Shown here one piece after another: positions 9,688-43,408 of a DNA stretch of 64,000 nt; position 1 is the first letter of the stretch, and the number at the start of each line of letters is the position of its first letter. The stretch comes from Bartonella grahamii subsp. shimonis (GTDB lineage: Bacteria; Pseudomonadota; Alphaproteobacteria; Rhizobiales; Rhizobiaceae): NCBI RefSeq assembly GCF_036327415.1, contig NZ_CP123961.1:1116001-1180000 (forward strand). The letters are read 5' to 3'. The notes below the pieces were generated by a model. That model was not told the origin of the DNA and did no database searches. It saw nothing but the letters and a program-made list of their open reading frames with translations. The translations under genes were made by a program, and so were the position numbers.

Positions 9688-9750
9688 ATGTCCGATGTGA
9701 AAAATGGAAAATCATTAAAGGACGTAAGTGATTCCTCTTCGAATCATTGA
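9688..9750 (+). pseudogene. In-frame 20-codon upstream ORF ended by TGA, possible lost N-terminus of mltG
   Basis: An ATG at 9688 preceded by GAGGGG opens a 20-residue reading frame (MSDVKNGKSLKD...) that stops at the TGA at 9748-9750. It is in the same frame as the mltG ATG at 9766, with 15 sense bases between. Rhizobial MltG proteins often begin MSD and carry a polar N-terminal extension before the membrane anchor, so this looks like the original start cut off by one nonsense mutation. A chance upstream ORF cannot be excluded. Confidence 0.45.
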
Positions 9751-9765
9751 GCAGATAATTGTGAC

Positions 9766-10797
9766 ATGTTAACACATAACAAACGAAAGAAATCATCTAT
9801 CGTCCGTAATCCGTTGGTTATTCTCGGTCATTTTTTTCTCATGCTGATTATAATTATTCTTTTCGGCATAAGTATTCCTCTTTATATTGGAAAAAGTATT
9901 TTTGAAGAAAAGGGAGGAATTGAGGAAGAACAAGTTATTCTTATCCATCCTGGCACAGGAATTCGTGAAATTGCTTCATTGCTAGAAAAACGTGGTTTCA
10001 TTCGATCATCAGATATTTTTGTTTATGGGGTTGGTTATCACCAAAAAACAACGCATCTGAAGGCTGGTGAATATTTAATTCCAGCCCATGCTTCAATGCA
10101 GGATATTATGGATATTCTTGTGAAAGGAAAATCCATTGAGTATACTTTTACAGTACCGGAAGGTTTAACGGTTCAGCAAATTTTTGATCGATTAGCGGCG
10201 AATGAAATTTTGATTGGGGACCTTCCAGAAATTTTGCCTCCAGAGGGCTGTTTAATGACGGATACAGTTCATTTTATTCGGGGGACAACGCGTAAAGAGA
10301 TTGTAAACAGATTGCGTGAAGGACAAACAAAATTAATTCATGCTATATGGGCTACGCGTTCACCTGATCTACCCATTAAATCAATTGATGAATTTGTTAT
10401 ATTAGCCTCAATTGTTGAGAAAGAAACAGGAATTGCAGCAGAAAGACCAATGGTTGCTGCGGTATTTTATAACCGCCTTACAAAGCATATGCGTCTTCAA
10501 TCGGATCCAACAGTAATTTATGGTCTCTTTGGAGGAAAAGGAAAACCGTCCGGTCGTGCAATTTATCGTTCAGATCTTGAGAAGAAAACACCATATAATA
10601 CTTATAAAATTAATGGTTTGCCTCCAACAGCTATTGCAAATCCAGGTCGAGCTTCATTGAAAGCGGTGGCACATCCACCAAGCAGTGATGCACTTTATTT
10701 TGTTGCTGATGGTTCAGGAGGGCATGTTTTCTCTCGAACTTTAGAGGAACATAATATGAATGTTCGCAAGTGGCGAGAATTAAAAGCAAGACATTGA
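9766..10797 (+). CDS. mltG: Endolytic murein transglycosylase MltG (YceG-like)
   Basis: MltG cleaves nascent peptidoglycan strands inside the chain and acts at the inner membrane. The 343-residue product has a basic start, a membrane anchor at about residues 22-44 (NPLVILGHFFLMLIIIILFG), a LysM-like region (HPGTGIREIASLLEKRG), and the YceG catalytic domain with the conserved Glu in ASIVEKETG, LQSDPTVIYG and the C-terminal YFVADGSGGHVFS. The ATG used has no strong ribosome-binding site; the better one belongs to an upstream in-frame ATG at 9688 blocked by a TGA. Confidence 0.9.
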   Translation: MLTHNKRKKSSIVRNPLVILGHFFLMLIIIILFGISIPLYIGKSIFEEKGGIEEEQVILIHPGTGIREIASLLEKRGFIRSSDIFVYGVGYHQKTTHLKAGEYLIPAHASMQDIMDILVKGKSIEYTFTVPEGLTVQQIFDRLAANEILIGDLPEILPPEGCLMTDTVHFIRGTTRKEIVNRLREGQTKLIHAIWATRSPDLPIKSIDEFVILASIVEKETGIAAERPMVAAVFYNRLTKHMRLQSDPTVIYGLFGGKGKPSGRAIYRSDLEKKTPYNTYKINGLPPTAIANPGRASLKAVAHPPSSDALYFVADGSGGHVFSRTLEEHNMNVRKWRELKARH

Positions 10798-38853: not shown

Positions 38854-39839
38854 GGAGTAAACTCTATCATATGTATAACTGTACCGGATTATTAGCATAG
38901 AATAATAGAATTGATATCCAAAAAATACTCTTGTAGAAATCAAATAATATCCTCACTCCCAAATTATACACTACAGAAAAAATATTGATGTTATGGGAGC
39001 ATTTATTCACTGAGCTACTTTTATAGTATGAGATTAATCGTTAAGATTTTAAATTTTTTTATATGAAAGTATAGACAGGAAGAGGGCGAACATTTCAATA
39101 GAGATATTTATATTGTAAGAAAAGTTTTTTTATGATCACTCCCTCTTTCAGGAAAACTATAAAAGACAATCAATTAACGAGAGTATTAGTAAAGTTTGTT
39201 GAAAAAATTAAAGTTATCTTTCAAATTCATTCATAAATTTATTTGTTTAAAGATTAAAGGATTTAAAATGCTTGATAAAAACACCGTTACATTTAGCAGT
39301 TTTTTAGCGAGCGTAAAATTATGGATAGAGCAATGTGCTGGTATTATAGTGATAGATTTTTGTAAAAATGTGAATGAATCTCATTGATTGGAGCGGAGCC
39401 CAAGCTTTACATTATATACGCTAAATGGTTAGATTTTTGTGTATGATGCTAAAATAAACTTTTGAATATTGATATGTGCTCTGCAAGCTATCTCAATATA
39501 ATGAGGTTTTTTAACTCAAGTAAATAGGTTTATGTATCTCTAACACTGTATTATCTAGCGGCTTTATGAGATAATTTTATAAAAAAGACTAGAATAAGAA
39601 ATTCTTTTTACATGGATTATGCTTCGATTCCACGCTTTTGATTGAATGTAATTTTCTATTAATGCCCATTCTGTTTTCAATACTGAGACAGGTTAAGCAC
39701 ATAATATTATGAGAACGCATGCCCAGAATCCGGAGACTTGTAATAGTTAGGGCATGCAGCGGTTCAGAGAGCTGGTTATATGGAGGTATTTTACTGAATA
39801 AAGGCGCAAGCTGGTACCATTTTTATTTTTAGCAGTGTT

Positions 39840-39935
39840 GTCATACCTCTTGGCACTTGAGCTGGTTCATAAAGTGCATTTTTACTCTTTCCTCCAAAAG
39901 CTTTTATTTACACGCCTGCTTTGATCGAATGCGAT
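39840..39935 (+). repeat. Degenerate dispersed repeat, copy 2
   Basis: The block CTCTTGGCACTTGAG, then GGTTCATAA, GTGCATTTTTA and CTTTTATTTACA aligns with 47693-47760 and more loosely with 45757-45830. No coding frame runs through it. Confidence 0.5.
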
Positions 39936-40162
39936 GATGGCTCATATTTTGTATTGTATATGGAATAATGGATGATAAAATTCCTACCAATGCGAAGAAT
40001 AAATGTTGTGCGTAAGATGATAGTTTTTGAAGAGACAGATGATGAGTTAAGAAAGTTTTTTAGAGATTTTTCTTTCTGAATTTTTTTAATTGAATAGGTA
40101 AATTTTTTTACAGCATGTTATGATCTTTATCAGTAACGGATAATTTGGAGGAGCTGTTTGTT

Positions 40163-40255
40163 ATGATACGTACAACATTGTTTAAAAGGAAAGACATGAG
40201 CTATAGTATTTACAGGAAGATGAGTAGCCTAAGAGATCAGATGAAGTTCCTTTAG
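40163..40255 (+). CDS. Possible 30-residue small protein
   Basis: ATG at 40163 is preceded by GGAGGAG at a nine-base distance, the best ribosome-binding site in the surrounding 1.6 kb. The product (MIRTTLFKRKDMSYSIYRKM...) is basic, with no membrane segment, and matches nothing I know. It may be a chance ORF or a remnant. Confidence 0.25.
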   Translation: MIRTTLFKRKDMSYSIYRKMSSLRDQMKFL

Positions 40256-40489
40256 AAAAGTTTTTAAGCCTTTTGAATTTTGTATGAAGCGGTTTATCAT
40301 TTTTGAATGGTTTGTGTTATAATACGCTAAAAAGGGATGAGAGAATAAAAAGTTCTGTTGCAATAAAAGTGTGTGATTGCTTTTAAGTTAAGAAGAAAAT
40401 ATACAAGTAAGATATTATATTTGATACCTTCTTCAGAGGAAGCATGAATAAATGAAATCAAATTTAAAAGCATGAAGTTAGAGAGAGTA

Positions 40490-40801
40490 ATGGGTAATAT
40501 TTTTTCACCAACGCATTTAATTATAATTTTATTAATTATCTTTGTGCTTTTCGGTCGTGGTAAAATTTCTGAATTAATGGGCGATGTTGCTAAGGGAATT
40601 AAAGCCTTCAAAAAAAATATGAAGGAAGAAGATGACAGCATTGAGGATAAAGTTGAAATGGCTACTACTTCTCAAATAATTGATGTAGAATCTCAACAAT
40701 CTCAGCCGTTATCAGTAAAACATGTAACAGCGTGCAGAAAGGCTTCTTCTGCTTCTAAAAGAAGCAAAGCATCTGTTGCTAAAAAACAGCGTGTCAAATA
40801 A
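40490..40801 (+). CDS. tatA: Sec-independent translocase subunit TatA
   Basis: TatA polymerises to form the pore for folded proteins with twin-arginine signals. From the ATG at 40490 ([18 protein letters not shown]) it has 103 residues: one N-terminal membrane helix, the [22 protein letters not shown] hinge and amphipathic helix (a canonical TatA pattern), and a charged tail. An ATG at 40472 would add six residues. AGAGAG precedes the start. tatB follows after 55 bases. Confidence 0.94.
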
Positions 40802-40856
40802 CAAAAACGCAATCATCGTTGTGCATTATTTTTTGATGAGGAAGTCGAATTAAGAA

Positions 40857-41291
40857 ATGTTTGGGATTGATGGACCAGAGTTTGTCGTAATCTTACTTGT
40901 TCTCATCATTGTCGTTGGACCGAAAGATTTACCTAAAATATTAAAGACAATAGCAAAGGTAAGAGCTCATATGTGTGCAACAGCAAATGAACTTCGTCAT
41001 CAGTTTGATGATGCAATAAGACAAATCGAGCTCGATGATTTGCAAAAAACATGTTCGAATATTAGCGCTTCAAGCAAGAAGGTAACAGAAACTTTTGATC
41101 CCATTCAAAATGCATTAGAAGATATCCACGATAATTTGGATGTTAAGGCAACACACCATAAATCAGAAAAAGGTAAAGAAATTTTGGAGTGCGATCAAAA
41201 CGTAACCAATAAAGATACGACAATATCTACAGCTTCTCATCATTCTGAAGGCATTTTTATTGTTTATAAAGATAAAGAAGATGTGTCATGA
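40857..41291 (+). CDS. tatB: Sec-independent translocase subunit TatB
   Basis: TatB, with TatC, forms the receptor for twin-arginine signal peptides. The 144-residue product starts MFGIDGPEFVVILLVLI, then the Gly-Pro hinge VVGPKDLPKILKTIAK and a long amphipathic helix. The family's N-terminal Glu is present. The tail is charged and variable. Its stop overlaps the tatC start by four bases (ATGA at 41288-41291). Confidence 0.93.
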   Translation: MFGIDGPEFVVILLVLIIVVGPKDLPKILKTIAKVRAHMCATANELRHQFDDAIRQIELDDLQKTCSNISASSKKVTETFDPIQNALEDIHDNLDVKATHHKSEKGKEILECDQNVTNKDTTISTASHHSEGIFIVYKDKEDVS

Positions 41292-42069
41292 ATGTTAAGA
41301 AAGATGAAGTTGATGCCCATATGGCACCACTTTTAGAACATTTAATTGAACTTCGTCAGCGGATTATTTCTGCTTTGGTTGCATTTATGATCGCTTTTAT
41401 GATGTGTTTTCTTATTAAAGATTATATTTTAATTTTTTACTATGGCCATATCAGTGGGCAATGAAAATAGCAGGGGGTAATCCTGAGGGTATTCGTTTGC
41501 AATCAACGCAAGTATGGGAAACTTTTTTAACGAAGATGAAGCTTTCTGCTTTTGGGGGAATTATTTTATCTTTTCCCTATACGGCTTTTCAGTTTTATAG
41601 TTTTATTGCACCAGGGCTTTATAAAAATGAGCGTATGGCTTTTTTACCATTTCTCATTGGAGGGCCTATTTTATTTTGTATTGGGGGAGCGTTTGTTTAT
41701 AGTCTATTAGCGCCAATAATACTATGGTTTAGTCTTTCTCAACAATTTCTTCCAGATGTTCATTTAAAAATAGAGTTTATAGTGCGTATTTCTGATTATT
41801 TGGGCTTTATGACATCGTTTATCCTAATTTTTGGTTTAATTTTTCAATTACCTCTTGTCATCAGTCTTTTAACAAAAGTTGGATTTTTAACGTCTCATGA
41901 TTTGGCGTCTAAACGAAGATGGGCTATTCTCCTCTCTTTTATCATTGCGGCAATCATAACGCCGTCGGATTTTTTTACGATGTTTGCAGTGGCTTTACCA
42001 ACGATAGCACTTTACGAGATTTCAATTTTAATTGCTTACAGTATAGAAAAGAGAAGAAAATCCGCTTAA
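41288..42069 (+). pseudogene. tatC: TatC, interrupted by a -1 frameshift
   Basis: TatC is the multi-spanning core of the Tat translocase. The first frame starts at the ATG overlapping tatB (MNVKKDEVDAHMAPLLEHLIELRQR, shown here in part: LLEHLIELRQRIISAL) and runs into a stop at 41462. The rest of the protein, from LLWPYQWAMKIAGG through the last helix to 42069, is in another frame. Restoring one T in the run at 41427-41430 would rejoin them as DYIFNFLLWPYQWAMK, giving about 260 residues of normal TatC with six helices. Either a true pseudogene, a slippage-dependent gene or a sequence error. Confidence 0.9.
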
Positions 42070-42130
42070 GAAAAGTGTATAATCTTATGCGATAAGAAAT
42101 GAATAAAAACAATATAAATGAGGAATTTTT

Positions 42131-43408
42131 ATGCTTGATATTAAGTGGATTCGTGACAATCCTGAGAAATTAGATAAAGCACTCATAAGTAGAGGTCTTG
42201 AGCCACAAGCTGAAAGGTTAATACAACTTGATCTTGCGCGTCGGTCGCATATTGCTAAGGTGCAATTGGCGCAGGAACGTCGCAATGTGGTTTCAAAGGA
42301 AATAGGACAGGCTTTAGCGGTATCTGATCAGCAAATGGCTGAAAGCTTTAGAGCTGAAGGTGAAGAGATTAAAGTCTTTCTTTCCTCTGCAACAGCGGAA
42401 GAAAAACAGCTGACGGAGAGTCTTGAGAAAATTCTTTCAGCTCTTCCAAATATTCCATTAGATGATGTTCCAGAAGGTAAAGATGAAAGTGATAATGTCG
42501 TCATTCGACATTTTGGTACACCTCCAACATTTAATTTTACACCAAAGGAACATTTTGATCTTGGTCAAGATCTCAAGCAGATGAATTTTGAACGAGCTAG
42601 TCGTTTGTCTGGAACACGTTTTACAGTACTTTCAGGGGCGTTAGCACGGCTAGAACGAGCATTAGGCCAATTTATGCTTGATGTGCATGTCAATGAGCAT
42701 GGTTATACAGAATTTTCAATACCTCTTCTTGTTCGTGATGAGATTGTTTACGGAGCAGCACAATTGCCAAAATTTGCTGAAGACCTTTTTCGTACAACAG
42801 ATGGTCGATGGCTTATTTCTACAGCAGAAGTGCCATTAACCAATTTGGTCAACGATGAAATTCTTGAAATATCAGATTTACCACTGCGATTTGCTTCTTT
42901 ATCTCCCTGTTTTCGTTCAGAGGCGGGAGCAGCCGGTCGTGATACGCGCGGTATGTTGCGTCAGCATCAATTTTGGAAAGTTGAAATGGTCTCGATTACC
43001 AGTGAAGAGCAGTCTTTAATTGAATTAGAACGTATGACGGAATGTGCAGAAGATATATTAAAACGGCTTTGTTTGCCTTTTCGCACAGTGGTTCTTTCTA
43101 CGGGTGATATGGGGTTTGCAGCACGTAAAACCTATGACATCGAGGTTTGGCTTCCTGGTCAAGAATGTTATCGTGAAATTTCTAGCTGTTCAGTTTGTGG
43201 AGATTTTCAAGGTCGTCGTATGAATGCGCGCTACCGTAAAGAAGGCGATAAAAAATTGCATTTTGTTCATAGCCTTAATGGTTCTGGTACAGCTGTTGGA
43301 CGTTGTCTTATTGCCGTGCTTGAAAATTATCAACAGGCTGATGGATCAATCATTGTTCCAGATGTTTTACAACCTTATATGGGAGGTATGCGTTGTATTA
43401 CTGCTTAA
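42131..43408 (+). CDS. serS: Seryl-tRNA synthetase
   Basis: SerS charges tRNA-Ser. The 425-residue class II synthetase has the N-terminal coiled-coil arm (residues 1-105, starting [18 protein letters not shown]) that grips the tRNA, motif 2 in [20 protein letters not shown], and motif 3 in [25 protein letters not shown] precedes the ATG. It follows tatC by 61 bases, as in related genomes. Confidence 0.97.

What the first reader, a model, noticed from the sequence alone, without database searches (positions are those of the whole stretch)
41288..42069. tatC split by a single-base frameshift while tatA and tatB are intact
The first 58 codons and the remaining 200 or so are both well conserved but in different frames; one extra T in the run at 41427-41430 would restore the protein. 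Without TatC the Tat system cannot work, yet tatA and tatB show no decay. The options are a very recent mutation, RNA polymerase slippage on the T/A-rich stretch, or a sequencing error.
Basis: partly seen in the sequence, partly recalled or inferred. Interest (0 to 1): 0.7.

Follow-up and report, generated by a model that had tools for sequence, protein, structure and literature searches.

The report
Fresh frameshift in Bartonella tatC
One bacterial genome carries a fresh break in a gene for exporting folded proteins; relatives have lost the same gene several times, and in those held the gene for its likely main cargo, a respiratory iron-sulphur protein, is broken or gone too.

Summary
In this Bartonella genome (sister to B. 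grahamii ATCC 700132 on a SerS tree) tatC is split into a 58-codon piece (41288-41464) and a 202-codon piece (41461-42069) in different frames. Both match TatC, tatA and tatB are open, and there is no second tatC. Of the 70 other Bartonella genomes searched, 59 have an unbroken tatC frame.

The surroundings change the story. The other 11 have rotted or nearly deleted tatC (seven losses on the tree if it cannot be regained). In 11 of 11 the Rieske gene of the bc1 complex is broken or absent. Ten more lost Rieske but keep tatC. Only the window genome has broken tatC with an intact Rieske gene, and Rieske is its only Tat signal over the model cut-off. Its clade has a bo3 quinol oxidase but no recognised cytochrome c oxidase subunit I, so losing bc1, and Tat with it, should be tolerable (inference).

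Best reading: a very recent, real loss of function. An assembly error remains a serious rival. Slippage and ribosomal frameshifting have no sequence support. The mutation is ordinary; the genus-wide pattern is worth following.

The parts
40472..40801 (+). tatA, open (109 aa)
   Evidence: PF02416 43.1 bits, TIGR01411 69.4 bits
40857..41291 (+). tatB, open (144 aa), 10 codons longer near its 3' end than in the three nearest relatives
   Evidence: TIGR01410 56.9 bits (cut-off 56.5); no Pfam match
41288..41464 (+). 5' piece of tatC (58 codons); TatC-like at first, then out-of-frame residues and a stop
   Evidence: (PF00902 model positions 1-37)
41419..41464 (+). stretch open in both frames, within which the frame changes; no canonical -1 heptamer, longest run six
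41461..42069 (+). 3' piece of tatC (202 codons) in another frame; its ATG overlaps the stop of the 5' piece
   Evidence: PF00902 model positions 44-208, 174.9 bits
42131..43408 (+). serS, intact neighbour, used for the tree

Best explanation
A real and very recent frameshift has inactivated tatC in this Bartonella (shown: the break in the held sequence; inferred: that it is real and inactivating). Without TatC the twin-arginine translocase lacks its signal-peptide receptor (established knowledge), so its recognisable client, the Rieske protein PetA, should not be inserted and the bc1 complex should be idle. The cell should survive because electrons can leave the quinone pool through the bo3 quinol oxidase. 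In related lineages bc1 was lost and the Tat genes rotted, probably in that order. Here the same end is being reached with tatC breaking first, or so recently that petABC has not yet decayed.
For: The only TatC in the genome is split. The 3' piece shows constraint until recently: 8 synonymous and 2 nonsynonymous differences from B. grahamii, pN/pS 0.07, serS 0.17. The assembly looks clean: of 189 G021 ORFs of 150 aa or more with a G000 match at 80% identity or better, 175 are intact, and tatC is the only clear interior single-indel frameshift laid to G000; one further case cannot be polarised. Decay recurs: in 11 other genomes tatC is broken or nearly gone, seven losses without regain on a SerS tree. 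Rieske is broken or absent in 11 of those 11 and in 10 of the 59 with tatC intact. In the 57-genome clade that holds the window, CyoB is over its cut-off in 57, and no second haem-copper oxidase is seen except a broken remnant in G047. Rieske carries TRRDFLFLVT and is the only TAT signal over the cut-off in G000. [quoted passage not shown]
Against: The window genome is the single exception to the pattern: tatC broken while petA, petB and cytochrome c1 are unbroken. That is also what an assembly error in a healthy genome would look like. No second strain with the same break was seen; one search lists mostly full-length TatC but clusters at 90% identity, so it could hide one. Tat may matter beyond bc1: in genomes that lost Rieske but keep tatC, eight pairs still show pN/pS 0.08-0.36 on tatC, like the 12 Rieske+ pairs at 0.09-0.53, though these spans include time before the loss.
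Confidence: 0.55

Rival explanations
1. The frameshift is a sequencing or assembly error and the strain has a normal tatC.
For: A one-base difference in an A/T-rich stretch; the only genome of 71 with tatC broken but Rieske intact; the rest of tatABC has no stop or frameshift.
Against: The rest of the sampled assembly is clean: 175 of 189 orthologous ORFs intact, no other clear single-indel interior frameshift laid to G000. The longest run in the stretch is six.
Confidence: 0.33
2. The gene still works: RNA polymerase slippage or ribosomal frameshifting makes some full-length TatC.
For: Conservation of both pieces; T-rich stretch with a run of six.
Against: No canonical -1 heptamer in the 46-base overlap and no run above six. 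None of the 59 relatives with an unbroken frame needs such a step.
Confidence: 0.05
3. Two-piece TatC: the 202-codon piece is made by reinitiation at the ATG that overlaps the stop, and the pieces assemble.
For: ATG overlaps TGA at 41461-41464; the pieces cover most of the TatC model, 1-37 and 44-208.
Against: The model positions between the pieces are in neither product. The ATG is an internal codon shared by most of the 46 aligned relatives, so the overlap looks like chance.
Confidence: 0.04
4. On the genus pattern, a separate question: coupled loss is only parallel genome reduction; small genomes lose both bc1 and Tat for unrelated reasons.
For: 9 of the 11 double-loss genomes are 1.4-1.8 Mb. 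The sign test on independent pairs is not significant (median p 0.5), and starred branches force only four changes for the double-loss group.
Against: G019 and G036 (1.9 and 2.1 Mb) lost both, while their nearest tree neighbours kept both. Apart from G000 no genome of 71 lost tatC alone, while 10 lost only Rieske.
Confidence: 0.3

Closest known systems
TatABC twin-arginine translocase (PF00902, TIGR00945, TIGR01410, TIGR01411)
   Same: tatA, tatB, tatC in that order, next to serS; both tatC pieces match TatC by profile
   Different: tatC is in two frames in this genome, so a standard TatC cannot be made by ordinary translation
tat mutants and Rieske (Shewanella oneidensis, PMC3623810, abstract seen)
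   Different: There laboratory mutants; here a natural break and a genus-wide pattern
Loss of Tat in mitochondria (PMC6251230, passages seen)
   Same: Reductive loss of Tat, discussed together with the Rieske protein
   Different: Some eukaryotes without mitochondrial Tat keep Rieske (human sequence shown; Bcs1 in yeast); in Bartonella Rieske is missing wherever tatC has decayed, apart from the window genome
Tat in alpha-proteobacteria (PMC3305326, passages seen)
   Same: Rieske was the only predicted Tat client category shared by Anaplasmataceae and Brucellaceae
   Different: Its title reports Tat as functionally preserved; the passages that I saw do not treat Bartonella

Membership tests
TatC (PF00902) | profile match over cut-off | tested here: met
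   both pieces pass separately
TatC (PF00902) | one continuous reading frame | tested here: not met
TatC (PF00902) | translocase activity | not testable with these tools
   needs an assay
recent pseudogene | frame broken, relatives unbroken | tested here: met
   (in the held assembly)
recent pseudogene | little relaxation of codon-level constraint | tested here: met
   8 synonymous, 2 nonsynonymous in 202 codons against G021; first 44 codons 5 and 4
recent pseudogene | break confirmed by independent reads | not testable with these tools
   no reads held
programmed -1 frameshift | X XXY YYZ heptamer in the overlap | tested here: not met
   0 of 15 codon positions
transcriptional slippage | long A or T run (about nine or more; recalled) | tested here: not met
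   longest run in the overlap is six
Tat decay with bc1 loss as in other Bartonella | Rieske gene broken or absent | tested here: not met
   petA and petB open in G000; cytochrome c1 unbroken

The most novel reading that the evidence does not exclude
The break is real and fixed, yet the strain keeps a working bc1 complex: Rieske is inserted either by a TatC made in two pieces or without Tat at all. That would be a bacterium caught between Tat-dependent and Tat-free Rieske insertion.
Probability: 0.06. Interest if true: 0.75.

Novelty: new member of a known kind. Interest (0 to 1): 0.4.

Why it matters
A lone frameshift is ordinary. Its context is more useful. Bartonella gives seven losses of tatC besides the window (no regain), each in a genome without an intact Rieske gene, plus ten genomes at an intermediate stage with Rieske gone and tatC intact. 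This makes a testable case of ordered gene loss: once the client goes, the transporter follows. It also suggests that Rieske is the chief Tat client in this clade, and that its bc1 complex lacks a recognised cytochrome c oxidase. The searches listed no paper on Tat loss in Bartonella, judged by titles and starts of abstracts (searches listed 20 of 22 and 15 of 17).

Tried and rejected
Second tatC: none. Structured RNA at the locus: no Rfam match over gathering score in 38900-42200. Programmed frameshift and slippage motifs: none. General assembly noise: not seen in three sampled regions. The first scans, with ORFs of 80 aa or more, gave 45 of 47 and 83 of 89 at full length. Of the 14 of 189 non-intact ORFs: one is tatC; two are a HlyD/ABC pair broken by several indels at G000 987-990 kb; one has a stop at residue 199 of 403; four have a stop within the first 32 or last 10 residues, and one at residue 21 of 369 (YceG); one is a 494-aa ORF of G021 where G000 has two abutting ORFs (direction unresolved); one is cut by the window edge; two are very long ORFs with partial matches and one sits at the coverage limit. 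The reverse scan gave 177 of 189 intact. The independent-pairs sign test gave no significance; the Fisher test (p=1.4e-6) ignores kinship. The cbb3 model found nothing over its cut-off in 71 genomes, and cytochrome bd is in 10, all on the B. apis/B. tamiae side of the tree. One search was invalid (a four-residue query by my mistake) and was replaced. No structure prediction was run because it would not separate the explanations.

Full report
What is there. The window is bases 1,116,001-1,180,000 of a one-contig genome of 2,186,791 bases, G000. tatA (40472-40801) and tatB (40857-41291) are open. tatC is in two pieces, 41288-41464 and 41461-42069, in different frames. Each matches TatC on its own: PF00902 model positions 1-37 and 44-208. 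No other TatC is in the genome.

Where and how old. In 59 of 71 Bartonella genomes the frame over the gene is at least 262 codons without a stop. Against B. grahamii the 202-codon piece has 8 synonymous and 2 nonsynonymous changes (pN/pS 0.07; serS 0.17) and the first 44 codons have 5 and 4 (0.20); tatA has 0.23 and tatB 0.56. Constraint on the 3' piece therefore lasted until recently.

Error or real. I compared three stretches of G000 (64, 140 and 160 kb) with contigs of G021. Of 189 G021 ORFs of at least 150 aa with a match of 80% identity or more, 175 are intact in G000. tatC is the only clear single-indel frameshift inside a gene that can be laid to G000; one 494-aa ORF cannot be polarised. 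A HlyD/ABC pair near 987-990 kb is broken by several indels, as in real decay. The sampled assembly is thus not noisy, but one error cannot be excluded without reads.

Recoding. Both frames are open only over 41419-41464. No canonical -1 heptamer occurs there and no run exceeds six. Reinitiation at the overlapping ATG is possible on paper, but the TatC model positions between the two pieces would be in neither product.

Recurrent decay. In 11 other genomes tatC is broken or nearly gone: G006 (B. australis), G007 and G008 (B. bacilliformis group), G012 (B. bovis), G019 (B. fuyuanensis), G029 (B. melophagi), G036 (near B. refiksaydamii), G038 and G040 (B. schoenbuchensis group), G046 (sp. F02) and G047 (sp. 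A05). In ten of the eleven, UvrC and SerS-Pcm-NlpD stand around remnants of tatC; remnants of tatA or tatB are seen in seven of these ten. In G047 a glycosyl hydrolase family 3 gene (nagZ-like) stands before serS, with only a 65-residue tatC remnant between them. On a SerS tree these are seven losses without regain, besides the window. With regain allowed the tree needs six changes, and starred branches force four for the double-loss group.

Link to bc1. Rieske (TIGR01416) is unbroken in 50 of 71 genomes and broken or absent in 21. Crossed with tatC: both intact 49; Rieske intact and tatC broken 1 (the window genome); Rieske lost and tatC intact 10; both lost 11. Cytochrome c1 mostly follows Rieske; exceptions are G042, whose c1 is unbroken, and G062, a fragmented draft with no c1 match. 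Fisher p is 1.4e-6, but kinship is not corrected and the pairwise sign test on the tree is not significant. Two neighbour pairs (G036 with G064, G019 with G035) differ in both genes. Genomes that lost only Rieske are G001, G002, G023, G024, G033 and a clade of five; none but the window lost only tatC. This suggests that bc1 goes first and Tat follows (inference).

Why bc1 can go. I call the 57 genomes on the window's side of the tree the main clade; the other 14 are the B. apis/B. tamiae side (named in part). In the main clade CyoB of the bo3 quinol oxidase is over the cut-off in 57 of 57. A further haem-copper oxidase match (270-328 bits, under the cut-off of TIGR02891) is in 14 of 14 genomes on the other side and, in the main clade, only as a broken remnant in G047. 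cbb3 is over the cut-off in 0 of 71 and cytochrome bd is in 10, all on the B. apis/B. tamiae side. The bc1 complex of the main clade thus has no recognised cytochrome c oxidase partner; other acceptors such as peroxidases were not tested.

Clients. With the TAT signal model (TIGR01409), Rieske is the only hit over the cut-off in G000 and in the other Rieske+ genomes of the main clade; 35 of 36 show it, and G018 has no hit. Among the 21 genomes without an intact Rieske only two hits occur: the broken petA of G042 and a 16-codon frame in G019. Yet tatC of Rieske-less, tatC+ pairs still looks constrained (pN/pS 0.08-0.36 in eight pairs, against 0.09-0.53 in 12 Rieske+ pairs), and TatA and TatB are open in all ten such genomes. 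Further clients that this model misses are therefore likely, or the losses are recent. petA and petB are open in G000 and cytochrome c1 is unbroken there.

Judgement. A recent real loss of tatC is the likeliest reading (0.55), an error next (0.33). The window genome breaks the genus pattern, which cuts both ways. A tolerable loss of bc1 makes it plausible; the intact petABC makes an error plausible.

Literature. The searches listed no paper on Tat loss in Bartonella, by titles and starts of abstracts. PMC3623810 (abstract), PMC6251230, PMC3305326, PMC4013037 and PMC5322542 (passages) were seen. PMC4013037 mentions convergent loss of a respiratory system within Bartonella, in context the bd quinol oxidase. 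PMC5322542 states that B. tamiae is the only Bartonellaceae with a bd oxidase; one search finds it in nine further genomes.

Noticed in passing
window 39610-39777: Remnant (38% identity over 60 residues) of a nagZ-like gene in the 1.5 kb spacer before tatA. The gene is complete before tat in the B. doshiae, B. clarridgeiae, B. rochalimae and B. bovis loci, in pieces in four others, and not found in seven of the 15 loci tested.
   Followed up: partly
window 9688-10794: YceG-like gene (PF02618) has an in-frame stop where B. grahamii codes residue 21; a later ATG leaves the domain whole.
   Followed up: partly
G000:C1 about 987,200-990,200 (L163): HlyD-like and ABC-transporter genes broken by several indels in the window genome but open in G021.
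   Followed up: partly
71 Bartonella genomes: The main clade keeps an intact Rieske gene in 36 of 57 genomes although no cytochrome c oxidase subunit I is recognised in any of them.
   Followed up: partly
   Followed up: no
L035 (Bartonella sp. AU18XJBT): Its tatB has a stop opposite residue 124 of the window's 144-residue TatB, while its tatC matches over all 260 residues.
   Followed up: partly
window 41237-41267: tatB has ten extra codons near its 3' end compared with B. grahamii and two further near relatives.
   Followed up: no
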